DNA of 37,008 bases from the IMG/VR virus record IMGVR_UViG_3300033146_000590, positions 1 through 37,008 of that record; one strand, given 5' to 3'. The notes under the pieces are model-generated. The model ran no database searches. It was not told the origin of the DNA and worked only from the letters and a program-made list of their open reading frames with translations. Shown here in pieces: positions 5,384 through 36,092 of the stretch (its first letter is position 1; each line of letters opens with the position of its first letter). Made by a program: the position numbers and the translations under genes. This stretch comes from a virus.

Positions 5384-6207
5384 TATGCTAACATATCTGA
5401 CACTAGCTTATATCCATGTGTCATCATAGATTGAATACCTGACTGTTCGAAATTCATAGGATCAATAGTAAAATGATCAGTAGGACGAATTATACGTAAA
5501 TTAACGCCATCACGTTTAGCTAATGCAATATCATTTTCAAATATTTCACGAGCCATAAATCCTAAAACACGTGTTCCAAGTTCTAGTACATTTTTTGGTT
5601 CTGTGTTGTATGGAATAGGAGTTTTATTCTCTGTTAAAATTACATCTATATCTGTTGCTCCACGATCAATAGCAGCTTGAAGTGGAGTAGCATTTATAAC
5701 TCCACCATCAACCCATGATCCACTATTGCCTAATGTTACTGGCGTAAATACTAATGGAAATGCTGCACTAGCAATTATGGCATCTAGAATATATTTAGAT
5801 GCAGTATCAAATATGTGATATTCACCAGTCTTGGTAGACACTGCACCTACAATTAATTCATGATTCATATTTGTAATTTCATGTATATCAACTCGACTTT
5901 TTATAAGATCTGCGAATGGAGCTGAATTAAACAAACTAGGAGCCCACAGTCCATTTATTTTTCCAAATGGGAATCGCCTCTTATAGATTTTGCTAGTACG
6001 TAGTTCGTTCCATAAATCAGTTAATTTAATAGTTCCAGCCCGAAACATATCATCATGGAACATAGCTAGAAATGAAGCATTTACTGCGCCTACAGAAACA
6101 CCACAGAAAAGGTCATACTCTGGTGTTTCATATTCGGCTAAAGCCTGCAGAGCACCTACTTGAAATGCACCACGACTACCGCCACCACTAAGAACTAGAG
6201 CTTTCAT
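5383..6207 (-). CDS. Patatin-like phospholipase
   Basis: A 274-residue protein with all the marks of a bacterial patatin-family acyl hydrolase. The oxyanion-hole loop is SGGGSRGAFQVG (residues 7-18), the nucleophile elbow is GVSVG with Ser38, and the catalytic Asp is in DGG (Asp167-Gly168-Gly169). The Ser-Asp dyad would hydrolyse acyl esters of phospholipids. Length is typical of stand-alone bacterial patatins. It lies inside the tail structural region between fibre genes and neck genes, and its stop overlaps the start of the papain-like gene. Its own start overlaps the end of a 47-codon gene. Patatins are known in some phages, but the role here is unclear: membrane attack during entry or lysis is an inference. 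GAAAGG precedes the ATG at a short distance. Confidence 0.85.
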   Translation of the reverse strand: MKALVLSGGGSRGAFQVGALQALAEYETPEYDLFCGVSVGAVNASFLAMFHDDMFRAGTIKLTDLWNELRTSKIYKRRFPFGKINGLWAPSLFNSAPFADLIKSRVDIHEITNMNHELIVGAVSTKTGEYHIFDTASKYILDAIIASAAFPLVFTPVTLGNSGSWVDGGVINATPLQAAIDRGATDIDVILTENKTPIPYNTEPKNVLELGTRVLGFMAREIFENDIALAKRDGVNLRIIRPTDHFTIDPMNFEQSGIQSMMTHGYKLVSDMLA

Positions 6208-17739: not shown

Positions 17740-18948
17740 TTATTCTTGGTTATCTTTGGGGAGCTTCCCCTCTTTCTGCATATCACGAATGAATGCAGAA
17801 GCAGCCTTATCACCTTTCATAAACTTAAGATATAAGTGATGTGCTTGGATAGCTTCCAAATCTTGTATAGTTGTTTTCATACTATCTTGAATTACCGTAG
17901 GATCTTCAACAGACCCCTCTGGTTTTCTTGACATTCCGTCATCCAGCTTATCAATGATTTTAACCATGTCAACTTCATTGATAAGTTTTGCGAGTTCTGT
18001 ATCAATAGCATCGTCAGATAGTAATGTAAAATCTTTCTTATCAGCTTTCTTATCTCGTAACATTGTAAGTGTCAATAGTTCTCGTTCCTTGTTGTCACGG
18101 ACAGTCTTTTGTCCATCGATTAGCTTATCTTGTAAAGTCTCTAGGTCATTATATAGAGCATGGTATTCAGAACGAAGAGCCGTTAATTCATCTCGCAAAT
18201 TACCAATAGTCTCTTCATGTGAAACAACTTCATCAATTAGTTTCTGATCAGGCTTTACCGTATCTAATAATTTAATATCAGTCAATGCCTGAATAAATGC
18301 ATCTACACCAACTAGTCCAGCAACACGTTTCAAAATAAGTTGTAAGGACTTTACTTCATTTTCATTTAAAGCTGGATCTAACTTAGCGTTATTTAGAGTA
18401 TAACTATTCTCTTCAAGAACTGAAACGATAAGATGCATAATTTGACTATGTGCAAATGTATCAACAACAGCAGTTGAGTTACATCCAAGAGCTTTGTATT
18501 TTCTATCTAGATTCTTTGTAATATTTGTTTTATCACCCTCGTATTTATCTAGAAGAGAACGAGATGCTATGATGTGAGCACAATTTGTAATAGGAAAAGA
18601 TCTACCCTCGCCGCAAAATGAAGATTGAGGCAAGTTATCAAGTTGCTCATCTGATAATTTAATATCTACTAGATCTTTAATGCCTAACTGCTCAAGAGTA
18701 AATTTACCTTCTTGGAAGCTGTTTTCAATTTCCTGCCAAACTAGAGTATAAAGTTGTTTCTCTTCTTCAAGCGTAAGCTCGGTAGAATTTAAGAGTTTAG
18801 CTACTGGATCTACTTCTTCAGTGGTATCTTCAGTTGTATTTTGTAGATCTGAAGAATCAGTAGTCTGCGTATTGTTTGAACTTGTTTCTGAATCAGAAGT
18901 TGTATCTTCAATAGAATTATCTTCTGTAGTTTTATCAGTTACCTTCAT
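17740..18948 (-). CDS. Nested in-frame scaffold protein (internal start)
   Basis: Met312 of the protease-scaffold protein (ATG at 18946-18948) is preceded by AAGGAG with a six-base spacer, as good as any ribosome site in the window, although it lies inside a long gene. Translation from here would give 402 residues starting MKVTDKTTEDNS: the acidic linker, the C-H cluster and the coiled coil, without the protease. This parallels lambda, where Nu3 scaffold is made from an internal start in the C protease gene. The product is inferred from the sequence signal and from the known lambda arrangement. Confidence 0.65.
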   Translation of the reverse strand: MKVTDKTTEDNSIEDTTSDSETSSNNTQTTDSSDLQNTTEDTTEEVDPVAKLLNSTELTLEEEKQLYTLVWQEIENSFQEGKFTLEQLGIKDLVDIKLSDEQLDNLPQSSFCGEGRSFPITNCAHIIASRSLLDKYEGDKTNITKNLDRKYKALGCNSTAVVDTFAHSQIMHLIVSVLEENSYTLNNAKLDPALNENEVKSLQLILKRVAGLVGVDAFIQALTDIKLLDTVKPDQKLIDEVVSHEETIGNLRDELTALRSEYHALYNDLETLQDKLIDGQKTVRDNKERELLTLTMLRDKKADKKDFTLLSDDAIDTELAKLINEVDMVKIIDKLDDGMSRKPEGSVEDPTVIQDSMKTTIQDLEAIQAHHLYLKFMKGDKAASAFIRDMQKEGKLPKDNQE

Positions 18949-19881
18949 ATTTGTCTCCTTGGAATCCGAAATGTATTGAGGGAAATTAACGCAGACATTA
19001 CACACCTTGCCGTGATTAGTAATCTCAATATTATCTTGAATACCATTATAGTTTAATTGTAAAACCCTACTATGTCTATCAGCAGGAACATTTACTAGAG
19101 AATATTCGTCATATAGTAAATTACCAGCTATAATAAAACATTTTGCTCCATCGTAAACTGCGCCAGGTGAATGGTCACATCTACCTTCTTCAGTCCAATC
19201 TTGTTTACAAATAGAACATACTGCTTTATCGGTAGTTGCACCAACTGAACCTGTAAGATATCGTTTATCTAATAATTTTTGAATTGCATCTAAATCAGTA
19301 ATATTAGCTATTATTTGAATATGTCCTAAACCTTCAAATGTTTCATCTTCTAATAAACTATCATTCAATAATGTACGAACAGTATCTACTTGTAGATCAA
19401 ATGACATTTTGCCATTAACAAAATCTTGAAGTAAAGTATCTGTAATTATTCCTCGTTCTTTCCCTACATGATCTCGTACGACTAGACCTTCAGCTAGTTT
19501 GTATTTATCAGCAATAGATCCAGATGTGTCTATATAGCTAGCAGCAATAACACGTCCAACTGGATCTGCTTCATCGTTATGATGTAGCAAAACTGGTTTG
19601 TCATAATTTGCAGTAAAGGATGTGGCTCCCTTTTTCATACGATCGGGAAGATATAGACCATTATTCCTTGTAATAATTCCAGAGTGAGTAGCTGCTATTC
19701 TAACTTGAAGTCCTTTTGGTTGGTTAGATTCTTGATTGCTAGTAAATCCCATTCCAGAAGAGTGTTCTTCTCCTTGGGGGTCTTGCTTAAATGCTCCAGC
19801 ATAATCATCTTGTATTTTTACAATTTGTGCATCTTCTAATTTAAATGTAACTACATCTGAAATTCGTAAAAAGTTCTTCAT
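17740..19881 (-). CDS. Prohead protease fused to internal scaffold, with zinc-binding insert
   Basis: A 713-residue protein with two halves. Residues 1-275 fit a herpesvirus-assemblin-like (S78-type) prohead protease: YDKPVLLHHND with His100/His101, then TGSVGA with a candidate nucleophile Ser212, and the family ending DEYSLVNVPAD (258-268). A Cys/His insert lies between them (Cys222, Cys225, Cys235, His237), likely a zinc site. After a long acidic linker (312-365), a second cluster follows, FCGEGRSFPITNCAH (Cys423, Cys434, His436), which I have seen in phage protease-scaffold fusions. A long coiled coil (about 553-605) then resembles a scaffold. The protease would cut head proteins and then itself. 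An in-frame internal start yields the scaffold half alone. Assignment of the nucleophile is a motif-based inference. Confidence 0.68.
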   Translation of the reverse strand: MKNFLRISDVVTFKLEDAQIVKIQDDYAGAFKQDPQGEEHSSGMGFTSNQESNQPKGLQVRIAATHSGIITRNNGLYLPDRMKKGATSFTANYDKPVLLHHNDEADPVGRVIAASYIDTSGSIADKYKLAEGLVVRDHVGKERGIITDTLLQDFVNGKMSFDLQVDTVRTLLNDSLLEDETFEGLGHIQIIANITDLDAIQKLLDKRYLTGSVGATTDKAVCSICKQDWTEEGRCDHSPGAVYDGAKCFIIAGNLLYDEYSLVNVPADRHSRVLQLNYNGIQDNIEITNHGKVCNVCVNFPQYISDSKETNMKVTDKTTEDNSIEDTTSDSETSSNNTQTTDSSDLQNTTEDTTEEVDPVAKLLNSTELTLEEEKQLYTLVWQEIENSFQEGKFTLEQLGIKDLVDIKLSDEQLDNLPQSSFCGEGRSFPITNCAHIIASRSLLDKYEGDKTNITKNLDRKYKALGCNSTAVVDTFAHSQIMHLIVSVLEENSYTLNNAKLDPALNENEVKSLQLILKRVAGLVGVDAFIQALTDIKLLDTVKPDQKLIDEVVSHEETIGNLRDELTALRSEYHALYNDLETLQDKLIDGQKTVRDNKERELLTLTMLRDKKADKKDFTLLSDDAIDTELAKLINEVDMVKIIDKLDDGMSRKPEGSVEDPTVIQDSMKTTIQDLEAIQAHHLYLKFMKGDKAASAFIRDMQKEGKLPKDNQE

Positions 19882-19889
19882 AGTATCTC

Positions 19890-22064
19890 CTACTTAGTTA
19901 TAAGTGAACATTCGCACGATGGGTGAAATGGTGGAATGTCATCAAGTGTTACATATTCTGTTGTAACTGAATTTTTTGTATGTGAATTGCAAATTGCACA
20001 TGATGAATCTGCTGTCATTTTACTTGAAATTGACAGCATTCCATTGTCTTTATGCGCAATTGCTCGTCCTAAATTATATGCTTTACGTACTTCTACATCT
20101 TCGATAAATCTAGTTCGATATTTTAAAGACTTAAATACAGCACGTGTGTCAGAAGCTATACTCTGTATCGGATCTGTATTATCTACTTTGCGATTAAGAC
20201 TAATTACAATATCATTGGCTAATTTAGTAACGTAATGATTAGCTCTCTCTTGAAAATGAGCCCTAGCTGTAATAGCACTATTAATAAAATTGGTATTATC
20301 AATAACTTCTACCATATACCCAGAATGAAAAGCTACCATTTGATCTGTCAATAACTCTGTTATTGCTGTATCCATCTGGGTATGAATTAATTGATTTACC
20401 CATGTTTTATCTAATCGTCCAGTTCGAGTTACTCGTTCTATTGCATCATTAGTAAGCTCCGAAAACACTCCTGACAAATATCCATCTTTTCGTTTAGGTT
20501 CGGATGGACGAGTTGCAGTTACAGGAGGAGCAGATATTTCCTTAGCTTTCTGTACTGCTTGCTCTTCATGAGCTTTCTGAGATGCATTTATATCTGCTTC
20601 AGAAGTACTTAGTGTGGCAGTACGAGAAATAGCCTTAGCAAGTGGAGACCATGGTTCATCAAGAGCTTGAATTAATAGTCTAGGCTCTTCAAATAATTTC
20701 CAGAATGTATTATTCCATTCTGGAAAATGTTCTGCTGTATCAGTTTCTGCATCGATATCTTCACGTGTTGGAATCACAATTGGTTCACGACCCATCTCTG
20801 TACGAGCTTCATTAAAAGTTATCGTATTCTTAGAAAATAAATCTGCGTAATGATTATCTTTTTTAATTTGTGCATCGATATCTATTTCTTTAAATTGTAA
20901 TTTACAAATATTTTCTGAATCTAGTACTGAATCTCCAAATGTAGATTCTAGTAACAATTCATTAATAATAAAAAAGTTAAAAAATCCCTCGAATACTTGT
21001 TGGTAATCTTTTACAGCATCAACTAGATTTCTAGACATATTATCTGCTGTTGCACGATTAGCTGTTTCACCTTCGCCAAAGTCTACAGCTGATACTCCAA
21101 GTCCTGAAAAAACTCGTTTCTTAAAATGTGTTAAATATCCTTCGGCTCGAAGAGCGCGACCTTCAGCACCTATAGCAGTAATCTCGTGACGTTCAGGAGT
21201 TACAATACCACCTTCTGTTGGCATAAATTGTATTTCACGTCTAACGATATCTACTTCATGCTCACCAGTTTCTGTGACTGTAGCAGGAATTTCTTTTGTT
21301 CCAACCTTGTATTGGAATAAAGGGAATAGATGTTGGTATACAAGTAGTTCAATATTTTCTTCTATTTTTCTGAGAGCACGAATATCATCCATTACAGGTA
21401 CTGTAATAGGTGTACCAAAAATAAATCCATCTTTTTTATTATATACGAGATGAACGATATCCGCCGGAGAAAAATCTTTATAACTGCCGTCAGGCATCTT
21501 GTGACGCCATTGAACAATCTTGTCACCCTTAAGTTTATACTCCATACTTTCAGCAGGAGCTAAGAAATATCCTGCAACAGGTTTAATACTACCAGCAATA
21601 CCTTTCTGTTTGCGTACTTTACCACCTGATGCTTTAATGTCTCTAACTTTAACAATAAATACATTATGTTTTCTTACTAAAGAAGAGCCCATACCTCGAA
21701 GCAATTCTGCTGTAGATAATTTACTTGCTTGTTCAATTTGGGCTAATCTAGTTTTGATATAAGTAATAGATTTAGGATTAGCCCCTGTAATATTCCAACC
21801 TTCTTTGAACATAAGAGCTACTTTTTTGTTCATAGATTGGCCAACATAAGAATCTGTATCTTCTACTCTACCTATTTCAGCTAGATCATACTCGGAAGGA
21901 GAAAAAGCTCCTCGCCCGAGTGATCGCATACTTTTATACTTAATAGTTGGATCGAGTACAGAACGCATTACAGCTGGCTTCATTACAGATGGGGCTACTG
22001 ACGCAATTTTGGGTACTTTGTCTTTAATGACAGTCTTACCAAATTGTATACCAAAAATTTTCAA
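19890..22064 (-). CDS. Portal protein fused to a MuF-like minor head domain
   Basis: A 724-residue protein. Residues 40-440 match a portal protein: PSEYDLAEIGRVEDTDSYVG, then VRKHNVFIVKVRD, DIVHLVYNKKDGFIFGTPIT and a clip/stem segment (LRKIEENIELLVYQHLFPLF), followed by GLGVSAVDFGEGETANRATA, a familiar portal region. Residues 520-724 are a helical domain ending in Cys689-x2-Cys692 and PPFHPSCEC (His714, Cys717, Cys719), the signature of MuF/minor head proteins. These are often separate genes; here they are one chain. The start is TTG at 22062-22064, with GAGGTG ahead. The MuF part may be ejected with DNA or lie inside the head, by analogy. It is followed by the protease-scaffold gene after eight bases. 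Confidence 0.8.
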   Translation of the reverse strand: MKIFGIQFGKTVIKDKVPKIASVAPSVMKPAVMRSVLDPTIKYKSMRSLGRGAFSPSEYDLAEIGRVEDTDSYVGQSMNKKVALMFKEGWNITGANPKSITYIKTRLAQIEQASKLSTAELLRGMGSSLVRKHNVFIVKVRDIKASGGKVRKQKGIAGSIKPVAGYFLAPAESMEYKLKGDKIVQWRHKMPDGSYKDFSPADIVHLVYNKKDGFIFGTPITVPVMDDIRALRKIEENIELLVYQHLFPLFQYKVGTKEIPATVTETGEHEVDIVRREIQFMPTEGGIVTPERHEITAIGAEGRALRAEGYLTHFKKRVFSGLGVSAVDFGEGETANRATADNMSRNLVDAVKDYQQVFEGFFNFFIINELLLESTFGDSVLDSENICKLQFKEIDIDAQIKKDNHYADLFSKNTITFNEARTEMGREPIVIPTREDIDAETDTAEHFPEWNNTFWKLFEEPRLLIQALDEPWSPLAKAISRTATLSTSEADINASQKAHEEQAVQKAKEISAPPVTATRPSEPKRKDGYLSGVFSELTNDAIERVTRTGRLDKTWVNQLIHTQMDTAITELLTDQMVAFHSGYMVEVIDNTNFINSAITARAHFQERANHYVTKLANDIVISLNRKVDNTDPIQSIASDTRAVFKSLKYRTRFIEDVEVRKAYNLGRAIAHKDNGMLSISSKMTADSSCAICNSHTKNSVTTEYVTLDDIPPFHPSCECSLITK

Positions 22065-25085: not shown

Positions 25086-27527
25086 CTAAATATTTTTTCT
25101 ACGGGGGCGAGTTTGTTTAAACCCTAACCTACTTCTAGCTCTTTTTTCACGTTCTGCTAAATTAAGAGATCTAGGAGCAGGTCCGTCATGGGAAAAATTT
25201 GGATTATTCCATAATGATAACTGAGTCTCACGCATATGGCTAGCTGGAATACTCTTATTTACAGATATTAAACTGGTTTCAACAATATCATGTGTTCGAT
25301 CAGTAGTAGGTTTAGAAGTAGGTTTTGTTTTGTTACGATAAGGATTATCTATTACTAGATCACCTTCATGAATTATTGGATCTGTTCTCTCACCTATATT
25401 GCCAGAGAATGCCATTTTGACTTCAATTTTGGGTTTACCTAATGGACTTACTTCAAGTGTAAATGCCATTATACTAAGCATAAGTGCATCTAAAGTATGA
25501 TCACCTATTGTGTCTTCTTCAGCTGCGAATATAGGAACACCTGATACACTTCTACGTTTAACTACATAACCTTGTAATTGTCTTTGTAAGACATCATCAA
25601 ACTTTGAGAAATGGATATCACTTGCTTCAAATCTACGAACTGTATTTTCTACTAGGAATGCTTTTCCTGGTTTTTTTGTTATTTGATGCGTAAATAAATC
25701 ATGCGTTTCAACAGACCCGCCGAAAAAATATTTCTTTACAATGTTGCGCAATTTGGAGTCTGGATGTGATGGTCCTTTAGCTGGATCTATCATGGAATCA
25801 TAACCAAACTTACGCAGAACTTCATCTTGTGTTCCGCCATATCCAGCATCAATGTAAATAGCCATTGGGTTCCAAACACGATTTAGATTAGCTATTTTTT
25901 GACAGGCAGCTAATTGTGTCCAATTTTCTCGACTCACAATGTGGCGATCGACTACAATAAATTTTTTAACAGTTGGATTAAATCCTAATACAACAATAGT
26001 GGTTCCAATTGCTGTGTCATTCCAGTCCACCCCAAATGAATATGTCCAGCCTGGATTGGGGGCCATATCTTGGTAACGATAATCCTGCATTGCTGTTTGA
26101 ACATATGAATTTTGGAATACGCCTTCTTCTTGTTCGCCAAATTCTGCCATGACTTCATGCTTGTATGCGATACTAGTCATATTTTCTTGGAAGAACGCTT
26201 CTTGATCTTCTCCCCACATTGGGTTTACTTGTGATGGGAAATGAAATTCTTTCCAAACTTTTGAACTACAAGTATTGAAGAACTTTTCTCGCTTACCAGA
26301 TGGAGTAGAACTCATCCAAATAGATGCTTGAGGATAGTTAGTGATAATAGACCAGGCTGCATCCATGTCTTTAGATGCCAAGTAATCAGCTTCGTCAAAT
26401 ACAAGCATATTTGCATGTTGTCCACGAACTGCTTCGGCATTTCCGCCTGATTTGGTACCTGCCGTAAAACCAGCTACTTTAGAATTGTTATATAATTCTA
26501 TCGTATAGATAGGCGCTTTTACGCTTCTAAATAGTGCATTTTGTGTATTTGGGCTACTTCTAATGAGTTGCATTATTCGTTTAAAAATAAGATCAATTTG
26601 AGATTGATATGGTGTAATTATGACTACATCAAATCCTTCATTAACTGGAACACCTGGCTTGGTGAACATATGGTACAAAATTGAGATAACTAATGATTCG
26701 GTTTTTCCACTATTATGGGTATAGATACCATTAGCAATAAAGTTATGTGTATTTTCTATTTCTATATCATATGTAGTTTCTGTGCCAACTGGTGTAATTG
26801 AACTTACATAATCCCATAATATATTCTTGTTTTCTGAAGTAGCTATTTTGGTTCCTAAGACTAAACCAGTATCTATTGACAACCATTCTGCCTTAATACT
26901 GTTTGTACCAATAGTATTAGAAACATAGAACCGATGATCAGATGTACATTTTATTTCATGACCAAATCTAGTCTTAATAAGGAATACTTCTTTTTGTCCT
27001 GCATTCCAATGTCGAGTAACTCTGGAAGAAACTTGTTGTGACGTCTTCTCGTTAAGAGATATCACTATATCATCTGGTTTAATATCTGATATTGGTTTAT
27101 GCTGACCATTACTAAGAGTAATCTTAGTATCACCAGTCAAACATTGTCGTCCAATTCTAAATACTTTTCTACGAGATGAACATCTCAGCATTGTTGCTTG
27201 GTATGGTCTGTGATATCTAGAATGCCCTAGAATAGGAGTATCAGGATTCTCAGAAACCCATGTTTCATATTCTTCTGGATTTCTGCGTTTCCAGATTTCT
27301 CCGTCAGGATCTAGACAATGCCAATCAAGAGTCTCAGCTGCCCATTTGACGGGATCAAGTATATACGAAGCTGTGTTATCAGTTTCGTCATTAAATAAAT
27401 TAAGATTAGAGTAATCAGTTATGCCCTTGCATTTTATTTTAAATTGCTGACCTGCAACTAAGTTATGTTTTTTCTTGTAATTACGGACACAGGTAAGACA
27501 GGCATGATCACATTTATTTAAATCCAT
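25086..27527 (-). CDS. terL: Terminase large subunit (ATPase-nuclease) interrupted by a mini-intein
   Basis: The 813-residue precursor drops to about 669 residues after splicing. The Walker A motif is GRQ-SGKT, split between Gln128 and Ser273 by the intein. Walker B is LVFDEAD (Asp378, Glu379) and the coupling motif SSTP is at 406-409. The nuclease (RNase H-like) domain starts near 497 with VDWND (Asp501), then YIDAGYGG (Asp560) and DHTLDAL (Asp676, Asp680) as metal ligands. Together these drive DNA translocation into the prohead and cleavage. The N-terminus has Cys6, Cys10, Cys13 and Cys33 in a zinc-ribbon-like spacing, unusual for the family. AAGGTGAT lies before the ATG. There is a 97-base gap upstream, with no clear terminator or promoter. 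Confidence 0.9.
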   Translation of the reverse strand: MDLNKCDHACLTCVRNYKKKHNLVAGQQFKIKCKGITDYSNLNLFNDETDNTASYILDPVKWAAETLDWHCLDPDGEIWKRRNPEEYETWVSENPDTPILGHSRYHRPYQATMLRCSSRRKVFRIGRQCLTGDTKITLSNGQHKPISDIKPDDIVISLNEKTSQQVSSRVTRHWNAGQKEVFLIKTRFGHEIKCTSDHRFYVSNTIGTNSIKAEWLSIDTGLVLGTKIATSENKNILWDYVSSITPVGTETTYDIEIENTHNFIANGIYTHNSGKTESLVISILYHMFTKPGVPVNEGFDVVIITPYQSQIDLIFKRIMQLIRSSPNTQNALFRSVKAPIYTIELYNNSKVAGFTAGTKSGGNAEAVRGQHANMLVFDEADYLASKDMDAAWSIITNYPQASIWMSSTPSGKREKFFNTCSSKVWKEFHFPSQVNPMWGEDQEAFFQENMTSIAYKHEVMAEFGEQEEGVFQNSYVQTAMQDYRYQDMAPNPGWTYSFGVDWNDTAIGTTIVVLGFNPTVKKFIVVDRHIVSRENWTQLAACQKIANLNRVWNPMAIYIDAGYGGTQDEVLRKFGYDSMIDPAKGPSHPDSKLRNIVKKYFFGGSVETHDLFTHQITKKPGKAFLVENTVRRFEASDIHFSKFDDVLQRQLQGYVVKRRSVSGVPIFAAEEDTIGDHTLDALMLSIMAFTLEVSPLGKPKIEVKMAFSGNIGERTDPIIHEGDLVIDNPYRNKTKPTSKPTTDRTHDIVETSLISVNKSIPASHMRETQLSLWNNPNFSHDGPAPRSLNLAEREKRARSRLGFKQTRPRRKNI
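26712..27143 (-). other. Mini-intein inside the terminase Walker A motif
   Basis: Residues 129-272 of the terminase precursor have the intein motif set. Block A is CLTGDTKI (Cys129 as nucleophile), block B is TSDHRF (about 195-200), block F is YDIEIENTHNFIANG, and block G ends IYTHN with Asn272, followed by Ser273 as +1 nucleophile. At 144 residues it is near the minimum for a self-splicing intein. I see no LAGLIDADG or HNH homing endonuclease, so it cannot spread by itself. Excision restores GRQSGKT. Confidence 0.88.
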
Positions 27528-27624: not shown

Positions 27625-28047
27625 TTATATAGGATTAACAGCTGCATTGGATGCTAATTTGGCTTTTTTTTTAGTAGCAGCTTTGGTAATTCCTTCACCA
27701 AATATATCATCAAATGCTCTAGTTGCATTATGTTTAGTATCTCTCCATCCAACTTTTGCTGCTCTACCAACACCTGCAAGAGTGGAATTAAACATTGACT
27801 TGCCATTTGCATTAATCTTAAGACCTTTAGCAAGACCAACGCCACCATATCGTGCCGCAGCACCTCCACCAAGACCAAGCATGCCACCAACTGCTGCACC
27901 TCGAAATGCTTCCCCTAGCATACTTCTATTATCACTTAATCCACCATATGCTGCACCTAATATGCCGCCAGCTGCTGTACCTTCAAGTCCAGCCAAAAGT
28001 GGTTTAGCTTCTATGCCCCATTTAGCAATTTTTGCCCAATCAACCAT
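27625..28047 (-). CDS. Glycine-zipper protein A (membrane-associated or channel-forming candidate)
   Basis: I place the start at the ATG at 28045-28047 (MVDWAKIAKW) rather than the upstream GTG, because AGGTGA lies about five bases before it; this gives 140 residues. The middle has Gly/Ala zipper helices: GLEGTAAGGILGAAYGGLSD and GAAVGGMLGLGGGAAARYGG (about 23-68), a pattern of helices that pack in membranes or pore assemblies. A basic, polar tail follows. It is a tandem paralogue of the next gene upstream and related to the gene at 29297-30100. A virion-ejected membrane protein is an inference. Confidence 0.55.
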   Translation of the reverse strand: MVDWAKIAKWGIEAKPLLAGLEGTAAGGILGAAYGGLSDNRSMLGEAFRGAAVGGMLGLGGGAAARYGGVGLAKGLKINANGKSMFNSTLAGVGRAAKVGWRDTKHNATRAFDDIFGEGITKAATKKKAKLASNAAVNPI

Positions 28048-28326
28048 TGCTGTCACCTAAATAGGATTCACACCTGAGTTTGAATTCACTGTGTTGTGAG
28101 CTTTAGATGCTTTAGATTTACCTGCAAACCATTTATTTGCACTTGTCCACATATCGTCTAGATCATTTGTTAATGTATCTCCAGCTTTACTTACACCATG
28201 CAGTGCAGCTTCGCCACGTTCCATAGCTCCTGATTTAAATTTACCAAGACCTCGGGTGACACCAACGCCACCATATCGTGCCGCAGCACCTCCACCAAGA
28301 CCAAGCATGCCACCAACTGTTGCACC
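27835..28326. repeat. 66-bp near-identical tract in the two glycine-zipper paralogues
   Basis: Positions 27835-27900 and 28261-28326 agree at 65 of 66 bases (one C/T difference near the end). They code for the same Gly-rich helix in both genes. The surrounding coding sequence is much less similar. The listed range covers both copies. Confidence 0.9.
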
Positions 28327-28470
28327 ATTAAATGCCCCACCTAATACACTTCCGTTATCACTAAATCCGCCGTATACTCCGCCGAATAATCCACCGACTG
28401 CTGCACCGCCAGCTCCAGTCATAAGTGGATTAATTCGTGCAGCCTTTTTTGCTAATTTCATTAAACCCAT
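28057..28470 (-). CDS. Glycine-zipper protein B (tandem paralogue)
   Basis: A 137-residue protein, paralogous to its downstream neighbour. The pair LMTGAGGAAVGGLFGGVYGG and TVGGMLGLGGGAAARYGGVG lines up with the same segments there, with the Asp-Asn/Gly-Ser spacer between them (SDNGSVLGGAF). The C-terminal half is polar and unrelated in detail. GGAGG precedes the ATG. The two genes share a nearly identical 66-base tract although the rest has drifted. Probably membrane-active or part of an internal core; no function is proven. Confidence 0.55.
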   Translation of the reverse strand: MGLMKLAKKAARINPLMTGAGGAAVGGLFGGVYGGFSDNGSVLGGAFNGATVGGMLGLGGGAAARYGGVGVTRGLGKFKSGAMERGEAALHGVSKAGDTLTNDLDDMWTSANKWFAGKSKASKAHNTVNSNSGVNPI

Positions 28471-28482
28471 TTTTTCCTCCGA

Positions 28483-29304
28483 TTATCTATGTAAGAGAAC
28501 AGCTTCATTACCTATTGCCATTCTACCATTTATATGTGAATTGTGTAGAGCCTGTAGGGATCGTTGCCTCATTGTCGAATTCATACCATATGGGTCTACC
28601 AAATTGCCGCCCATTTCTGCATGTGTAAGATTTTTATTATAACTATGTGCAGCTTCTCCATAAGCGTATGTACCAACTGTCGCTGCAGCTGCAAGAGTTA
28701 CTGGAATTGCTATTCCTAAACTAATATCTGCAAGCATGGATTCAGCTATTTTAAATTGTCCCCATCCAATTCCTTCGTCTACTGCGGCTTTTATACCTCC
28801 CCATGCACCTTCATGCCTGGCACCTTCGTATATTGTATGAGCCATTATAGCAGGAGCTACCATACGAGACGCAAACCCAATAGTTTCTGCGGCTCCAAAA
28901 GTAATATGCCCTATTTTACTTGCGGTCTGTTCACCTATTTCTTTAGTTATGGCAGATGTGGCTCCACTACTTAATGATTTCCAAGCAGCTTTTTCTGCTG
29001 TAGCTTCCATGCCATAATTACGCAACCCCATGAAACCTGTATAAGTATGTCGAGCTGGAGCTGCTCTTAAATATGCTTCTTTAGCTATGCTACGTTCACT
29101 ACCAGCATGTTTGATCCAATCAGGGGCAGTAGGCTTGTCAGCAAACTGAAATCCAAATCCTTCAGCAAATCCAGTAGAAAAGTTTCTACCTAATTTTGTT
29201 GATTGAAGATGGCCCCATCCGCGTTCTATATAGTTAGGAGCTTGCTTTACTCCAGACCAAAATTCTTGTCGAATTTTGCCAAATTGTCCTAATTCTTTAT
29301 CCAT
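28483..29304 (-). CDS. Putative internal virion protein, hydrophobic helices
   Basis: A 273-residue protein. The N-terminal 90 residues are polar and helical (FGKIRQEFWSGVKQAPNYIE, GRNFSTGFAEGFGFQFADK). A middle part has Gly/Ala-rich helices (KIGHITFGAAETIGFASRM, VAPAIMAHTIYEGARHEG), and a hydrophobic helix at about 195-225 (MLADISLGIAIPVTLAAAA). The start overlaps the upstream gene by eight bases with GAGG ahead. Together with the glycine-zipper neighbours it may belong to an ejection or core complex. No family is recognised. Confidence 0.42.
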   Translation of the reverse strand: MDKELGQFGKIRQEFWSGVKQAPNYIERGWGHLQSTKLGRNFSTGFAEGFGFQFADKPTAPDWIKHAGSERSIAKEAYLRAAPARHTYTGFMGLRNYGMEATAEKAAWKSLSSGATSAITKEIGEQTASKIGHITFGAAETIGFASRMVAPAIMAHTIYEGARHEGAWGGIKAAVDEGIGWGQFKIAESMLADISLGIAIPVTLAAAATVGTYAYGEAAHSYNKNLTHAEMGGNLVDPYGMNSTMRQRSLQALHNSHINGRMAIGNEAVLLHR

Positions 29305-30100
29305 GTCTACCTCGATGCAATCCCTGTACTAAGTTAGTTGTACTGTTTTGGAGAGCACGATGCATTGGCTTTTGCATTCTTGGATATGATCCTACTTGTC
29401 CTGTAGGCATCATTCCTGATTGAATGGACATGGCAGCAATCTGCTGTTGATCATATTGAGTATTGACAGTTGCACCCGACAATGTTGGAGAAGTAGGTCC
29501 GTGGTTATGCATTATGGTAGATGTGGCAAAATATCCTCCTCCTAATACCCCCATTGTGACATATGGATGCCGAGCTACTGTCTTTGCTCCATGCATAGTT
29601 GATTGCAGAATACCTTTTCCAGCTCCCCATGCTACTCCTGGTGAATAATAAGCAGCACCTTTAGCAGCAGCGACAAGTGGAGACTGACCAAATGCCTTAC
29701 CAGTAATAGCGTCTTTTTTCTTTTGTAGAGCTTTAGACAGAAGTTCGTCTGGGGCTAACTGGCTTTCCGCATGTTTTATTTTATTCCATATTTTTTGGGT
29801 GCCAGTATCAAGTAGAACATTTTTAAGTCCAGCTTCTTCATTGAGACGAAGAATTTCTTTACCTAATTTACCTGTAGCTCCTATTCCACCACCAACTGCT
29901 GCACCTAATAAGGCTCCTTGGCCTATAGATCTTAATATACTAGTGTCACTATTTTTATCGAATCCATCTACTATACCTGCTCCGGCTCCAAACCCAGATC
30001 CAATTATCATCTTACCTGGGATTCCGCTTTTATATACATTGTAAGCAGTATTAGCAGTTGGGACCACCATCCCACGAAAAATTTCTCCTAAGAATCCCAT
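29297..30100 (-). CDS. Glycine-zipper protein C, putative internal virion protein
   Basis: A 267-residue protein. Residues 25-80 (KMIIGSGFGAGAGIVDGFDK, SIGQGALLGAAVGGGIGATG) repeat the two-helix glycine-zipper arrangement of the genes at 27625-28470, with the same intervening polar Asp/Asn/Ser segment. A charged stretch (HAESQLAPDELLSKALQKKK) and a third glycine-rich helix (YVTMGVLGGGYFA, about 177-189) follow, ending in a basic tail. GGAG precedes the ATG. It is the third family member in this cluster, suggesting expansion of a membrane-active module next to the packaging genes. Confidence 0.5.
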   Translation of the reverse strand: MGFLGEIFRGMVVPTANTAYNVYKSGIPGKMIIGSGFGAGAGIVDGFDKNSDTSILRSIGQGALLGAAVGGGIGATGKLGKEILRLNEEAGLKNVLLDTGTQKIWNKIKHAESQLAPDELLSKALQKKKDAITGKAFGQSPLVAAAKGAAYYSPGVAWGAGKGILQSTMHGAKTVARHPYVTMGVLGGGYFATSTIMHNHGPTSPTLSGATVNTQYDQQQIAAMSIQSGMMPTGQVGSYPRMQKPMHRALQNSTTNLVQGLHRGRHG

Positions 30101-30152: not shown

Positions 30153-33100
30153 TTATCTAGAACTAGATACTCTACTGTTACGTGATCCACGTCTCGTACT
30201 ACTTGAATTACTTGCCATTTGTTTTACTGTCTTCTTTTGAATTTCGGCTTGTTCCTTTTTTCTGAGCATTGTATATGTCTTACGTTCTGCATAAGGAAGA
30301 GTTGGTATTAACGTATGAGTTCTATCTCCAGCAGCCATTTCACGAGAAAGCCGCCTACGTGTATCAGTACGTGTAAGTTTAGTTTTATTAAGAGCTGCAT
30401 ATTTAAGAGGTGGATTAACTTTTACCTCACTTTTTATATTTGCGAGCAAACGTTTTTCTTGATTCATAATTGAACGTTCAACGACATATTCCATTGTGGG
30501 ATTATCAAGTTCCTTGCGTAATGTTGCTAGTCCCCAGTCGATTAATTTAAATGAATTATCTTTATCACGTAAAACTTGAGACAAATGTAGATCGATATGA
30601 ACAGGAACATTTTCGGTAGCTCCATACATTTTTCTAGCTTGTTCTTTTAGAAAAAACATTGCATCACCAACTTCTCGTTTATTGGTGCGATCAATAGTTC
30701 GTCCAGCCATTTCTTGGAAGAACCCAATTTGTTGTTTATTATTAACTACACCTAGCATCTTAGGTACAGCATCTGGTAGCCAGTTATTGGCCTTCTGCTG
30801 CATTTCTGCTTCATATAACAGTGCATGCTTAGAGCCAAACTGTAAATAAGTGCGACGCATCGCGTCTTGTTGCTCCTTTAGTATACCAACAGTAAATTTG
30901 GGATCTTCATTCATTAATGGAGTCCAACCGCGACCTCCTGGCATAATCAAACTATCAGTATTGAAATTAGTATACAGTTCTGTCAGTGATGCATCATTTT
31001 TAACTGACGTTTTATAAACAGCTTGTTTGCTTGTCTTTAAATTATATGCCGATTCAACTTTACCAAATCCACCTTTTCCTAATTCCTTACCTATTGCGAA
31101 GGTGTCTCCCTCTGTAGTTTTTTGTAAAAATTCTCCTAACTTTACTTTCTTTATAAATTCTTTAGACCCTAATTCAGTTCCAGCTGACTGAATTGCATGC
31201 ATACTATTCTTGAGAACATCAGATCCAAGATATTTTCTTAAAACTTCCATGGCTTGCTTGCTAGATGCCATGTTGCGAGTAGTCTCTGTAAGGTTCTTGA
31301 AAATGTCATATCCAGAACCAAATGGAGTAATATTGTGACGAATATACTGAGCTATACCATCGTGTCGAAGACCTTCAATTGTATTGTATTCATCATTGAA
31401 GCCAGAGAATTTAGATGGACGAGGTAGCTGTTGAGCAAACCTAAGCTGCTGTTTAGTTGTTTGTGTCTTTAAATATTTACTTAACTTTGCGTACTGTTGT
31501 TGAACTAAGCCTAAATTACCACCGTATAAATTTCCTTCTGCAGTGTAAGCTGCCGCTTCTTCTATTATGTTATTTTTATTAGCAAAATATGCGTAAGAGA
31601 ATTTAGGGTTACTTGCTCTAAACTTTTTAGAATATTTTTTTAAAACTTTTTGTAGAACAATAGGGGTAAATTGATGAACTCGTTCATGAAGAATTGTTTC
31701 ACTCAGTTCTGAAGAAGATAAATTGGGATTAAAAAATGTAGCATTTTTCTGTCCCAAATCCTCTAGACTACGTAAGGAACGTCTTACATGTTGAGCTTCT
31801 TCCCAAATACCTTGTTTCCGAAGTATCTTCTTGCTTTGTGTTATTTGTCTATAGTAGGATTTAATTCTGTATGATTGGCCCCATATATTTTTTGTATCTG
31901 TAGCACCAGCTAAGAATTTGAACATCTTATCCGAGATGCCACGAATAGCCCCATTCTCGTCAATCCAAGTTGGGTTCTTACTAAGAATCTTTCTGAGAAC
32001 CCCAGATCCAAATTCAGTCATCTGTTGTCTCATTTGCCAAGCTACTCCATTATGTTGTAATCCTTCATGTTGTGCATAGGCTTGATTAGACTTTGGTATA
32101 TTCTTGTGTTTTCTAGATTGATAATAGAGTGAACGTCCGAACCGCCGAGATAAATTTATTTCATCGGTTGTAAGGTCTCTTTTTTCATCACCAAGAGATT
32201 CAAGGAATGAAGCTTCAGCACCAACTAATAAGTTACTAGCTAATTTATCTATTCTAGTAAATGTATTGTGAGTAGTAGTTCTACCTTTATATACATTAAC
32301 CAATCGTTCAGCTTGATACCTGGCATATTGCCACATGCCACGTTTGTGGCTTCTAGCTTCTTCTTCTGCAATCCTAACATGTCCACGAAGAAGAATATCT
32401 TCATCTGCAGGGCCAAAGGGTAAAGCTGATACGTCTCCTGTTCGTGTTAATTCAAGATTTAGGTTTTTGTCATCCTTGCCAGAAACAATACCTAAATAGC
32501 GACCATAAGTTTTCCTACCAGTAGATACGGTAATTCCAAGATCGCTACCCTGAGCTTCTGCCATTTGCCTCAAAGATTTAGTGGCTTGTTCGCCCCATAC
32601 CTGGTTCTGCCAGATACGTACATTATCTAGTGGGTCGTCTGAGTGTCCTGTTGTTTCAGGAGCATCAATACCAGCTAGACGAACAGCTATCTTACCGTAC
32701 CCAAATAACTCTTTAACTCTAGATACTATATCCTTACGATGAAGAAAAACTGTGTCCGCATCTTCTATTTCAATATTGAATTTAGATGCATCTACTCTTC
32801 GTATCTTGTCATCCTTAGTATTTACACCTTCAATAGTAGATACGGGAATTGAAAGAAAGTCTGATTCACGTAGTTGACCTAACTTAGCTTGAGCAGCATC
32901 TTGTTTTCTTTGTAATTCTGATTCGAATGCTTTTCTAGCTTCACGATCATTTATTACTTTCTTTCTGAAATCTAGAATAGTTGGATTTATCTTTGTCCCT
33001 AGGAGAGATGTAGGAATAGGTCTAGCTTTCTTCTGTTGTCTAGCTACTTTAGTAGTAGATGCCCAAGGTAGTGATCCTGTAGTATGTACTACTGAGCTAT

Positions 33101-35273
33101 TTACTCTACTTGGAGAAGATTTTATAGGACGACGATTGGGCGGCCTCGCAAAAAATTTTTCTGTCGCTACACTAGGATTAAATCCTTTTTCAAAAGTTAC
33201 TTGTGTCGATATTCGTTTCTTAATAGGTGATACGTAACGTCCAACCGCTGTATCAAGATCTACCCGATTAGAAACTGCATAATCTTCTTTATATCTAAGA
33301 GCAGCACCACGATGAGCAAATAATTCATTAGCAACCCATTCGGTAGCCCAATTTGGACCCATTGGAGATGAGGCTAAATTTATTACTTGGGCATAGACCG
33401 GAGCCTTATTGCGAAGCGCCTCTACATCAGGTCCATAATTAGAATATAACCATCCTGGATCTAATTGACGTTCAGCCTCGTGCATGAATAATTGTTTATC
33501 TTCAGGTCTCAGATCATTCTGCCAAATAGAATGTAGCCCTTCGTGTAAGGTCGTCTCTTTGATCCTGCTGGGCGATAGAACAGAATAGGTCCATTCACCT
33601 ATCTCACGTGCTGCACGTGCTCTAGGGACGTACTGGAGCGTGTCTGAGAGTATTGTAATGGGGTCAATGAAGCCACCCACTGACAATGTATTGTTTGAAG
33701 AGTCAAATTGGCCCATATCGCCAATGAATTTTCGTTTATAGAGTTCAACTTGAACTGAATCTCGTTTTTTAGGGTGGTCCCATCTAACCTGAGAATGATA
33801 TGCTTGAACTACTTTCTCCCTACTTATTAATTGTAGAGAGAGACGTTCATTATAAGCTCGTCTTATCTTTCTGAGAAATGACCCATATTCTTTCTCAGTA
33901 ATTACACCATCATCTGTTTGAGTAGATATACCAGCTGATACACGTGGTCCTTGGTATCCAGATCCAAAATCTGTATGCATATGGCGTAGACGACTAGCCG
34001 TACCATCGTGACCCAAACCTTCAATTGTATTGTAATCATCATCATCTCCAGAAATTAGAGATAATGGTTTAACGAGGCTTAGTATTCCAACACCAAGTGC
34101 AAGACCAAGAAGTAGTGTATTGTTCTTCACAAAAGATGCGGTTCTTTCTAATAATTTAGGTGCCTTTTTTAATCCTTTTACTACTTCTTCATCTGCCGCC
34201 TGGAATATTTTTTTCTTTGCTGAATAGACTTCAGTATCTATAATTCCTTCAGCATTTATGTGAGGAATAAACCAAGAGTTATTTACTGTATAGGTTGCCT
34301 CATTGAATTGAGTACTTTCTGAAATATATTCCAGAGGCACTCGATAGGTATCAGCTAAATTAGTTAGTCCCTTCTGAACATTTTTTGTAAATGATTTGTA
34401 ACTGTATTTAGTCTCTATCCTGGCAGCTTCTGCGAGTATGTCTTCTGTAGTATTATCATACATTACACTACTAATAAGCTTATTTTGTAGTGCTAACCTA
34501 TTCCATTCTCTTAATTCTTTTATAGAGAGAGAGTTACGATTAGAGAGAAGATTGTGAATCTCACGCAAGCCGCCGACATCGGCTTCTGACATATGTGCAT
34601 TAGCTAGAGGTTTACCAGTAAGAACTTGATAGACTAGTTCTTGTTTCCAACCAGACATACGAACTGGTCGTGGCCAAGAAGCTAACTTGTGTGCATGATC
34701 AGATAATCCAGATACAGTATTCTTCCCAGTCTCATAGAGTTTCACCCATTTGGATGCCTTAGTGTATCCTAGTGATTGTCTTTTAAGATGAGGATCAATA
34801 ATTCCATATGGGGCTTCTGTGACTACATGTGCAAGACGAAGTGCAGTCTCTTGGCCAAGATCTCTAATCTTTATTTTACTGAGTGCAGATGCTAATTCCT
34901 TATCGAGACCATACTTAGCTGCTCTTTCTTGTAATTTAGGAATATCAAAGCCATGAGGCTTATTAGGTAAATCAAATGCATTATCTACATATCCAGAAAA
35001 CCAACCTATTAGAGTGCTATCTTTATTAGCCTTCAGAACAGAGATGAATTTGTTCAACATCTCTTTTTCTGAAGTGAATTCCTTTCCTTGTTGTGCAAAG
35101 GACTTCTTCAGCGGTTGCCATACTTTTGAATCTGCCCAAACTCCAATAATGCTTCCTTCTGCTGGGTTGGCACCTAGAGTTTGAATTGGCTTATTATCTA
35201 TTCCATATGATATGGATAGAATGGAAGCATTGCTAAAGCCACCCGCCTCGATATCAAAAAATATATTTGCCAC
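30153..35273 (-). CDS. Multi-enzyme polyprotein: exonuclease, two metallopeptidase-like, SNase-like and kinase-like domains
   Basis: A 1706-residue protein with a GTG start (35271-35273) and GGAG overlapping the previous stop. Domains in order: a DEDDh exonuclease with Asp7/Glu9, Asp110 (GFDIPKL) and His227-x4-Asp232; a membrane-like helix (384-408); an HEGLH zinc-peptidase motif (577-581) with possible third ligands Glu645/Glu650; a staphylococcal-nuclease-like domain with Asp840, Arg865, Asp870, Glu873 and Arg925 (YGRYLG); a second HERVH motif (1196-1200) with Glu1238/1239; and a kinase-like domain with GKGGFGKV (about 1399-1406), Lys1421, HID at 1559-1561 (Asn of the loop replaced by Gln1566) and DWG (1579-1581). 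Three copies of a YNTIEGL-x-HDG...FGSG linker separate the modules. Residues 1650-1706 are basic and Ser-rich. It lies between a possible small terminase and glycine-zipper genes. I know of no single described protein with this set; roles of the parts in the cell are inferred. Confidence 0.78.
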   Translation of the reverse strand: MANIFFDIEAGGFSNASILSISYGIDNKPIQTLGANPAEGSIIGVWADSKVWQPLKKSFAQQGKEFTSEKEMLNKFISVLKANKDSTLIGWFSGYVDNAFDLPNKPHGFDIPKLQERAAKYGLDKELASALSKIKIRDLGQETALRLAHVVTEAPYGIIDPHLKRQSLGYTKASKWVKLYETGKNTVSGLSDHAHKLASWPRPVRMSGWKQELVYQVLTGKPLANAHMSEADVGGLREIHNLLSNRNSLSIKELREWNRLALQNKLISSVMYDNTTEDILAEAARIETKYSYKSFTKNVQKGLTNLADTYRVPLEYISESTQFNEATYTVNNSWFIPHINAEGIIDTEVYSAKKKIFQAADEEVVKGLKKAPKLLERTASFVKNNTLLLGLALGVGILSLVKPLSLISGDDDDYNTIEGLGHDGTASRLRHMHTDFGSGYQGPRVSAGISTQTDDGVITEKEYGSFLRKIRRAYNERLSLQLISREKVVQAYHSQVRWDHPKKRDSVQVELYKRKFIGDMGQFDSSNNTLSVGGFIDPITILSDTLQYVPRARAAREIGEWTYSVLSPSRIKETTLHEGLHSIWQNDLRPEDKQLFMHEAERQLDPGWLYSNYGPDVEALRNKAPVYAQVINLASSPMGPNWATEWVANELFAHRGAALRYKEDYAVSNRVDLDTAVGRYVSPIKKRISTQVTFEKGFNPSVATEKFFARPPNRRPIKSSPSRVNSSVVHTTGSLPWASTTKVARQQKKARPIPTSLLGTKINPTILDFRKKVINDREARKAFESELQRKQDAAQAKLGQLRESDFLSIPVSTIEGVNTKDDKIRRVDASKFNIEIEDADTVFLHRKDIVSRVKELFGYGKIAVRLAGIDAPETTGHSDDPLDNVRIWQNQVWGEQATKSLRQMAEAQGSDLGITVSTGRKTYGRYLGIVSGKDDKNLNLELTRTGDVSALPFGPADEDILLRGHVRIAEEEARSHKRGMWQYARYQAERLVNVYKGRTTTHNTFTRIDKLASNLLVGAEASFLESLGDEKRDLTTDEINLSRRFGRSLYYQSRKHKNIPKSNQAYAQHEGLQHNGVAWQMRQQMTEFGSGVLRKILSKNPTWIDENGAIRGISDKMFKFLAGATDTKNIWGQSYRIKSYYRQITQSKKILRKQGIWEEAQHVRRSLRSLEDLGQKNATFFNPNLSSSELSETILHERVHQFTPIVLQKVLKKYSKKFRASNPKFSYAYFANKNNIIEEAAAYTAEGNLYGGNLGLVQQQYAKLSKYLKTQTTKQQLRFAQQLPRPSKFSGFNDEYNTIEGLRHDGIAQYIRHNITPFGSGYDIFKNLTETTRNMASSKQAMEVLRKYLGSDVLKNSMHAIQSAGTELGSKEFIKKVKLGEFLQKTTEGDTFAIGKELGKGGFGKVESAYNLKTSKQAVYKTSVKNDASLTELYTNFNTDSLIMPGGRGWTPLMNEDPKFTVGILKEQQDAMRRTYLQFGSKHALLYEAEMQQKANNWLPDAVPKMLGVVNNKQQIGFFQEMAGRTIDRTNKREVGDAMFFLKEQARKMYGATENVPVHIDLHLSQVLRDKDNSFKLIDWGLATLRKELDNPTMEYVVERSIMNQEKRLLANIKSEVKVNPPLKYAALNKTKLTRTDTRRRLSREMAAGDRTHTLIPTLPYAERKTYTMLRKKEQAEIQKKTVKQMASNSSSTRRGSRNSRVSSSR

Positions 35274-35276
35274 TAG

Positions 35277-36092
35277 TTACTCCAGGGTGTCGTCAAACTC
35301 AGCATCAATTATTGATTGAGGAGATAGGACAGAAGATGTTTCGGCGGTCTCAATCTTTCTAGCGAGACTATCTAATTTAGTACGAAGTGCAGCCTGCTGA
35401 CTACTTGGGTCATCTGTGGGCTTTTGTTTGAGTGCTGCTTCTTTCTTGTATTTTTCTTGTCTGTCACCAACCATTAATTTAACTATCTTGCTCTTCCTGG
35501 CTTGAAGCTTGTCCTTCAGATCCATGAATGGAGATAGAGCCTTTTGGATTATGGGAGCACCCTGTTGGGTTACACCAATAGTTTGATCAGTTACTAATTC
35601 AGCATTATCTGGTAGAGATAGGTTCATATTAATTCTCATTAGAAGAATTTCTATTTCTGCTAGTTCTGAAATGTAACCTACTTCTGTAAAATTATTTGGA
35701 TCTACATCATACTCTTCAAAATATCTCACTATCCATTCTTTGAGTAATTGGGTTTCTATTATGCACTGTTTACCTATTGGATGTTTTCCCATTTTATATA
35801 GGGGACAGCGAGAGCGAAAAGGACAAAGATCCCCGCCGCAAAAAAGTGGAACCATTGCTGTGCTACCGGTTGAGAGTTTGCTCAAATGGTTGTGCAGAGA
35901 TAGGGCTTCCTTCTTTGTTAACTGAATATCTTCGTATTCATCTAGGTTATGGCCAAGAGAACGAAAAAAATTAGATTTAGTTATCTTTCCAGATATAGTA
36001 GTAGCAGTTCCGCCGAGAGAAATCATACCTTTCTCTTCTCTATTCTCTGCTGTAAATACAGATTCATCTTCAACTTCTTCTCGCTTACTCAC
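35277..36092 (-). CDS. Four-cysteine packaging-cluster protein, possible small terminase
   Basis: A 271-residue protein, first gene of the leftward operon. The start is GTG at 36090-36092 with AGGAG six bases upstream. Its clearest part is a cysteine cluster with Cys85, Cys90, Cys96 and Cys110 (FCGGDLCPFRSRCPLYKMG then GKQC), which could bind zinc or an iron-sulfur cluster. The N-terminus is acidic. A helical middle (ETQLLKEWIVRYFEEYDVD, ISELAEIEILLMRINMNL) and a charged C-terminal coiled-coil-like part (LDSLARKIETAETSSV) follow. Small terminase subunits are often encoded near the large subunit, are helical and end acidic, so this is my best guess. No helix-turn-helix is evident. Confidence 0.4.
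   Translation of the reverse strand: MSKREEVEDESVFTAENREEKGMISLGGTATTISGKITKSNFFRSLGHNLDEYEDIQLTKKEALSLHNHLSKLSTGSTAMVPLFCGGDLCPFRSRCPLYKMGKHPIGKQCIIETQLLKEWIVRYFEEYDVDPNNFTEVGYISELAEIEILLMRINMNLSLPDNAELVTDQTIGVTQQGAPIIQKALSPFMDLKDKLQARKSKIVKLMVGDRQEKYKKEAALKQKPTDDPSSQQAALRTKLDSLARKIETAETSSVLSPQSIIDAEFDDTLE

What the first reader, a model, noticed from the sequence alone, without database searches (positions are those of the whole stretch)
30153..35273. One protein joining exonuclease, two HExxH, SNase-like and kinase-like domains
Five enzyme-type modules sit in one 1706-residue chain: DEDDh exonuclease (all five residues present), two HExxH zinc-peptidase motifs, an SNase-like domain with its Arg/Asp/Glu set intact, and a kinase-like domain with Gly loop, Lys, HxD and DWG. 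Seen: the motifs and order. Known: each family alone is common. Inferred: the protein is packaged and delivered into the host, where it could cut DNA and proteins and modify others. I know of no described phage protein with this set.
Basis: partly seen in the sequence, partly recalled or inferred. Interest (0 to 1): 0.85.

Follow-up and report, generated by a model that had tools for sequence, protein, structure and literature searches.

The report
Modular phage cargo protein with linker tag
A large uncultured phage carries, in a fixed slot beside its DNA-packaging gene, one giant multi-enzyme protein (DNA-cutting, kinase-like and probable peptidase parts) whose parts are separated by the same 36-residue peptide in dozens of related phages; it looks like a set of tools the phage delivers into its host, and the repeated peptide suggests a testable rule for how such sets are built and perhaps cut apart.

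Summary
The ORF is real: 1706 aa, intact, on the minus strand (window 30153-35273). The DEDDh exonuclease (TREX1-like), SNase and kinase modules are supported by profiles; the first two also by an AlphaFold model. Both HExxH segments keep HExxH plus a distal Glu in relatives, but a zincin fold was not confirmed. The closest known kind is the 'polyvalent protein' (Iyer 2017): injected multi-domain phage proteins. A degenerate DNA scan with it, then module and neighbour scans, gave 39 non-redundant proteins from uncultured phages, with 1-6 copies each in complete ORFs. Copies lie between domains (1 of 98 midpoints inside a domain, 21.8 expected). The gene sits in one slot (p271-POLY-glycine-rich proteins-TerL). 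A motif-independent scan with p271 found it in 19 of 19 loci. Nothing matched in 50,697 phage records, PLSDB plasmids or 84,980 GTDB genomes. Best reading: a virion-delivered polyvalent cargo protein with shuffled modules and a conserved junction tag, probably a processing or docking site. Delivery and cleavage are inferred, not shown. New variant of a known kind.

The parts
30153..35273 (-). whole multi-module ORF, 1706 aa (POLY)
   Evidence: intact; collinear relative of 1784 aa in L057
34533..35264 (-). DEDDh 3'-5' exonuclease module, TREX1-like (aa 4-247)
   Evidence: near-invariant D7 E9 D110 H227 D232 in 11 relatives; profile vs PDB E 8.5e-10 to DEDDh exonucleases; AlphaFold mostly >90, TREX1 by Foldseek
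34056..34118 (-). hydrophobic, glycine-containing segment TLLLGLALGVGILSLVKPLSL (aa 386-406), possible membrane helix
   Evidence: hydrophobic segment precedes the first motif copy in 55% of proteins against 3% of random stretches
33948..34055 (-). junction motif copy 1 (aa 407-442) ISGDDDDYNTIEGLGHDGTASRLRHMHTDFGSGYQG
   Evidence: profile E 3e-18; codons
33186..33926 (-). HExxH module 1 (aa 450-696; H577 E578 H581, distal E650), possible zincin
   Evidence: 3-way alignment; 6 loci by tblastn; HExxH region pLDDT about 80-94; no profile match to known peptidases
32127..32990 (-). SNase module with family-specific extensions (aa 762-1049; Pfam core 864-982)
   Evidence: Pfam E 5.7e-11; invariant D838 D840 R865 D870 E873 R925; Foldseek 2rbm TM 0.81
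32001..32099 (-). junction motif copy 2 (aa 1059-1091)
   Evidence: profile E 2e-13
31419..31976 (-). HExxH module 2 (aa 1100-1285; H1196 E1197 H1200, distal E1238), possible zincin
   Evidence: 6-way alignment with those residues invariant; single-sequence profile matches L121; AlphaFold mean pLDDT 65 and no PDB match
31305..31409 (-). junction motif copy 3 (aa 1289-1323)
   Evidence: profile E 8e-18
30504..31115 (-). kinase-like module (aa 1387-1590; G-loop, K1421, HID 1559-1561, DWG 1579)
   Evidence: Pfam Pkinase E 1.5e-6; profile of 19 relatives vs PDB kinases E 1e-15
35277..36092 (-). p271, conserved Cys-containing protein immediately upstream; marks the slot
   Evidence: 50-65% identity in 7 phages; 19/19 retrieved neighbours carry POLY downstream
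29297..30100 (-). gz1, glycine-rich hydrophobic protein just downstream
   Evidence: relatives in the same position
28483..29304 (-). gz2, glycine-rich hydrophobic protein downstream
   Evidence: relatives in the same position
25086..27527 (-). terminase large subunit interrupted by an intein; end of the conserved block

Best explanation
It is a phage-type polyvalent (multi-effector) cargo protein of a clade of large uncultured contractile-tailed phages. Shown: one late-region gene in a fixed slot (p271-POLY-gz-TerL) encodes a chain of interchangeable enzyme modules: exonuclease N-terminal when detected, kinase usually last, SNase and HExxH modules variable. The modules are separated by a conserved ~36-residue peptide that is predicted to be unstructured and lies between domains. 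Inferred: the chain is made with the virion proteins, packaged, and ejected with the DNA; the hydrophobic segment and the adjacent glycine-rich proteins help it cross or sit in the envelope. In the new host, or during head maturation, the repeated peptide is recognised by a phage factor (a processing protease or a docking partner) so the modules act as separate tools. The two nucleases would attack host or rival DNA or DNA-based defence intermediates, the kinase would modify host proteins, and the HExxH modules would cleave the chain or host proteins.
For: Module identity. Late/virion gene block conserved across the loci. Motif-independent retrieval by p271 gives POLY in 19/19. Two contigs found only by the exonuclease or HExxH module (L064, L059) also carry the motif. 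Motif at module boundaries: 1/98 copies inside a domain against 21.8 expected; 21 of 23 module junctions other than HExxH1-SNase (0/4) hold a copy. Motif better conserved (mean 51% identity) than exonuclease 30%, SNase 39%, kinase 23%, with varied codons, so selection acts on protein. Motif stretches pLDDT mostly <50. Precedent for injected multi-domain phage proteins with repeated metallopeptidases interspersed between domains: PMC5512222.
Against: No virion proteomics, activity or host data. 17 of 30 complete proteins lack HExxH, so cleavage by a peptidase in the same chain cannot be general; the protease, if any, would act in trans. The zincin fold is unconfirmed. A gene position among virion genes does not prove packaging. 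SNases usually need calcium (own knowledge), which is scarce in cytoplasm.
Confidence: 0.6

Rival explanations
1. The motif is a docking or packaging tag, not a cleavage site: each copy binds a head-lumen, portal or scaffold protein, so several copies tether a long flexible cargo chain inside the capsid. The enzymes are still delivered.
For: Multi-copy (1-6 in complete proteins), highly conserved, predicted disordered, between domains; even short proteins (339 aa, L113) carry it.
Against: No partner is known; a tag would not obviously need to sit at nearly every module junction.
Confidence: 0.35
2. An ejection/channel protein whose main role is DNA entry: hydrophobic segments and the neighbouring glycine-rich proteins form a conduit, and the enzyme modules are secondary or process the incoming end.
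For: Hydrophobic segment before the first motif; glycine-rich proteins adjacent in most loci.
Against: Module content varies widely between phages while the slot stays fixed, which fits effectors better than a channel; some proteins consist of little more than motif plus kinase (L113).
Confidence: 0.15
3. Not packaged: a late enzyme made in the infected cell that degrades host DNA and controls host proteins or excludes rival phages.
For: Inference only: nucleases and a kinase could act in situ, and no proteomics exists; the module identities are.
Against: Conserved location between p271 and TerL in the structural/packaging block; published phage polyvalent proteins are typically near virion genes, taken as consistent with inclusion in the virion.
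Confidence: 0.2
4. The repeat has no function of its own and is a by-product of recent module duplication and recombination.
For: Modules are clearly shuffled.
Against: Copies from different phages are about as alike (51%) as copies within one protein (54%) and more alike than the modules; synonymous codons vary.
Confidence: 0.05

Closest known systems
Phage-type polyvalent proteins (Iyer et al. 2017, PMC5512222)
   Same: One long polypeptide combining unrelated enzyme domains, located near late/virion genes; the most common domain there is a zincin-like HExxH metallopeptidase, sometimes in several interspersed copies; kinases occur.
   Different: The main text does not mention SNase or DEDDh and has 'exonuclease' only in its reference list; supplementary lists were not readable. 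I found no conserved junction peptide in the parts of the paper read or searched. The elements there are mostly (pro)phages and plasmids with database genomes; this family is absent from GTDB genomes at the sensitivity used.
Phage P1 DdrB and N4 virion RNA polymerase (as reviewed in PMC5512222)
   Same: Large virion-associated phage proteins with an MPTase domain; DdrB is proteolytically processed before packaging.
   Different: Different catalytic modules; no sequence relation tested; processing of the present protein is unknown.
TREX1/DnaQ-type DEDDh exonucleases and staphylococcal-type nucleases
   Same: Fold and catalytic residues.
   Different: Here they are modules within a phage multi-module chain.
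Acinetobacter phage vB_AbaM_ME3, Bacillus phage vB_BauM_KLEB27-3, Moorella phage MTATph1
   Same: Distantly related terminase and portal; ME3 and KLEB27-3 also a related major capsid protein.
   Different: No match to the modules or motif in the stretches read nor in whole-record tblastn.

Membership tests
Phage-type polyvalent protein | two or more domains with disparate biochemical activities in one polypeptide | tested here: met
   exonuclease, SNase and kinase supported
Phage-type polyvalent protein | encoded in an invasive element near late/virion genes | tested here: met
   slot next to TerL, portal and capsid genes in the loci where flanks are held
Phage-type polyvalent protein | frequent zincin-like MPTase domain | tested here: inconclusive
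   HExxH plus distal Glu conserved but fold not confirmed
Phage-type polyvalent protein | transferred into the host with the DNA | not testable with these tools
   needs virion proteomics and injection assays
Polyvalent-protein kinase group (loss of C-terminal subdomain, intact active site) | active-site residues intact but little conserved sequence after the D[WF]G | tested here: inconclusive
   profile match ends just after DxG; no kinase model was made
DEDDh exonuclease | five catalytic residues and RNase H-like fold | tested here: met
SNase | Pfam SNase above cut-off, catalytic D/D/R/D/E/R, SNase fold | tested here: met
Zincin metallopeptidase | strand-helix core with HExxH helix and Glu helix | tested here: inconclusive
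   residues met; no significant fold or profile match

The most novel reading that the evidence does not exclude
The ~36-residue junction peptide is a dedicated recognition/processing tag of a modular delivery system: any enzyme module placed between tags in this one chain is packaged, ejected and released as a separate effector, and the phages of this clade swap modules in a fixed genomic slot.
Probability: 0.35. Interest if true: 0.85.

Novelty: new variant of a known kind. Interest (0 to 1): 0.62.

Why it matters
Injected multi-effector phage proteins are mostly known from bioinformatics. Here one slot, one conserved junction peptide and swappable modules give a simple way to find such proteins in uncultured phages: the motif alone retrieved most of the family. 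They also give a direct test of how the chain is packaged and divided. If the peptide is a delivery or processing tag, it would define a natural phage-to-bacterium protein delivery system.

Tried and rejected
Close-relative scan with the whole protein and tblastn in cultured phages and plasmids: nothing. Alignments A1 and A3 were too diverse for a locus scan; closer subsets worked. GTDB scan with the motif: none; with SNase: only other SNase genes without the other modules or the motif. A shared C-terminal tail signal between POLY and the glycine-rich proteins looked likely by eye but found no statistical support. A joint HExxH2-plus-kinase model was dropped because MAFFT kept aligning HExxH segments on the kinase. 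The HExxH2 model was poor and matched nothing. HExxH modules 1 and 2 share no more than the HExxH helix. Cleavage of the motif only by a peptidase in the same chain was rejected as a general rule, because 17 of 30 complete proteins lack HExxH. A DNA-level (recombination site) cause for the motif was rejected: synonymous codons vary.

Full report
1. Observation. The ORF at 30153-35273 lies on the minus strand, starts with GTG and is open for 1706 codons. Pfam finds SNase (E 5.7e-11) and, below its cut-off, Pkinase (E 1.5e-6); PHROGs gives DNA polymerase families over residues 13-129, the exonuclease segment.

2. A hidden repeat. The chain contains three copies of a peptide around E-G-L-x-H-x-G-x-A-(x3)-R-(x3)-T-x-F-G-S-G at residues 418, 1070 and 1300. 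They fall between the proposed modules. A degenerate DNA pattern for this peptide was run against 2.9 million viral contigs and retrieved 43 stretches; a looser one retrieved 54. I estimated by hand the chance number for the strict pattern as well below one. In the loci translated, the peptide lies in a large ORF of the same general kind, one per locus. An iterated profile gives 37 non-redundant proteins with 98 copies, 39 proteins after later scans. Consensus: F-S-G-K-D-D-x-Y-N-T-I-E-G-L-R-H-G-G-x-A-x-x-x-R-K-x-x-T-D-F-G-S-G-Y-x-G, with G 100, F 97, G 99 and S 99 percent at the best columns.

3. Modules. Profiles built from the window protein find the modules reshuffled in these proteins. EXO-M-M-ZN1-SNase-M-KIN-KIN in L057 (1784 aa) is close to collinear with the window's EXO-M-ZN1-SNase-M-(HExxH2)-M-KIN. 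Complete proteins range from 339 to 2418 aa. When an exonuclease is detected it is N-terminal, and the kinase is most often the last recognised module. The DEDDh residues D7, E9, D110, H227 and D232 are near-invariant in 11 relatives. SNase D838, D840, R865, D870, E873 and R925 are invariant in 13. Profiles of relatives match solved DEDDh exonucleases (E 8.5e-10) and protein kinases including Rio2 (best E 1e-15).

4. Structure. AlphaFold of residues 1-1100 with 18 sequences gives most blocks >90 over the exonuclease and SNase modules and 80-94 around the first HExxH helix. Values fall below 50 over 318-454 and 1057-1100, where motif copies 1 and 2 lie. Foldseek returns staphylococcal nuclease (TM 0.81) and TREX1. 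The second HExxH segment was modelled poorly (mean pLDDT 65) and matched nothing. Neither HExxH alignment matches a known peptidase by profile, and the two share only the HExxH helix. So 'metallopeptidase' rests on conserved HExxH plus a distal Glu and on precedent, not on a confirmed fold.

5. The peptide marks module borders. One of 98 copy midpoints falls inside a recognised domain, 21.8 expected at random. 21 of 23 recognised module-to-module junctions contain a copy; the exception set apart is the HExxH1-SNase junction (0/4), which behaves as one unit. Between different phages the peptide is 51% identical on average, against 30% (exonuclease), 39% (SNase) and 23% (kinase); copies within a protein are 54% identical. 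Synonymous codons vary at the most conserved residues, so the conservation is of protein. The first copy often follows a hydrophobic segment (above threshold in 55% of first copies, 18% of later copies, 3% of random stretches).

6. Genomic slot. In loci with enough flank the order is p271-POLY-gz1-gz2-gz3-TerL-p586-portal, all on one strand; small differences occur, such as a gz3-like gene before gz2 in L014 and L026, and undetected gz1 or gz3. As a motif-independent test I searched with p271: all 19 loci found (some are near-duplicate contigs) encode a motif-bearing POLY next to it. L064 and L059, found only through the exonuclease or HExxH1 module, also carry the motif.

7. Distribution. No match in 50,697 phage records to the window protein, its long relative or the motif consensus, none in PLSDB plasmids to the window protein, none to the exact motif pattern in 84,980 GTDB genomes. 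An SNase-based genome scan returned only other SNase genes. Terminase, portal and, for two of them, capsid place the phage distantly near Acinetobacter phage ME3, Bacillus phage KLEB27-3 and Moorella phage MTATph1, genomes of 177-235 kb. In the stretches read none has a POLY-like gene.

8. What it is. The closest known kind is the polyvalent protein of Iyer et al. 2017 (PMC5512222): multi-domain phage and plasmid proteins proposed to be injected, typically near late genes in phages, with zincin-like metallopeptidases often interspersed between domains and proposed to release modules, and kinases. The multi-domain and gene-context features are met; delivery and zincin fold are not shown. That paper's main text does not mention SNase or DEDDh, and no paper in the open library prints the tested strings of the peptide. 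Because 17 of 30 complete members have no HExxH, processing, if it happens at the peptide, must generally use a protease in trans; a candidate is ORF 17740-19881, which matches an annotated prohead protease of phage KLEB27-3.

9. Likelihoods (judgement). Virion-delivered polyvalent cargo protein: about 0.6. Peptide as processing or release tag: about 0.35; as docking tag: about 0.35; the rest is undecided.

10. Limits. Host unknown; all relatives are metagenomic contigs and may be fragments; the family was first retrieved by its motif, which is why the motif-independent scans matter; module calls come from profiles seeded on one protein; supplementary files of the 2017 paper were not readable here.

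Noticed in passing
25086-27527: The terminase large subunit carries an intein (Pfam Intein_splicing E 7.2e-18 at residues 136-272).
   Followed up: partly
5383-6207: A patatin-like phospholipase gene (Pfam E 1.3e-29) sits among structural/tail genes.
   Followed up: no
27625-30100: Four glycine-rich, hydrophobic small proteins in tandem between POLY and TerL; relatives of at least one of them lie next to POLY in most loci.
   Followed up: partly
35277-36092: p271, an unknown protein with conserved cysteines (C85, C90, C96, C110), 50-65% identical between phages whose POLY proteins differ widely.
   Followed up: partly
19890-22064: The portal ORF seems fused to a head-morphogenesis (MuF-like) domain at its C-terminus (PHROGs).
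   Followed up: no
30153-30260: Many relatives end in a basic tail with a G-[GR]-x-H-like signature; the window protein ends in a weaker Ser/Arg-rich version. No statistical link to other proteins was found.
   Followed up: partly
L017:5180-9544: A weak DnaJ-like match (E 9e-4, below cut-off) between two motif copies suggests further module types in this family.
   Followed up: no
L012, L028, L042: A different HExxH-containing module (HEDVH/HEDEH with a preceding H-L-H-E stretch) occurs in several relatives and by eye is not related to the window's two.
   Followed up: no
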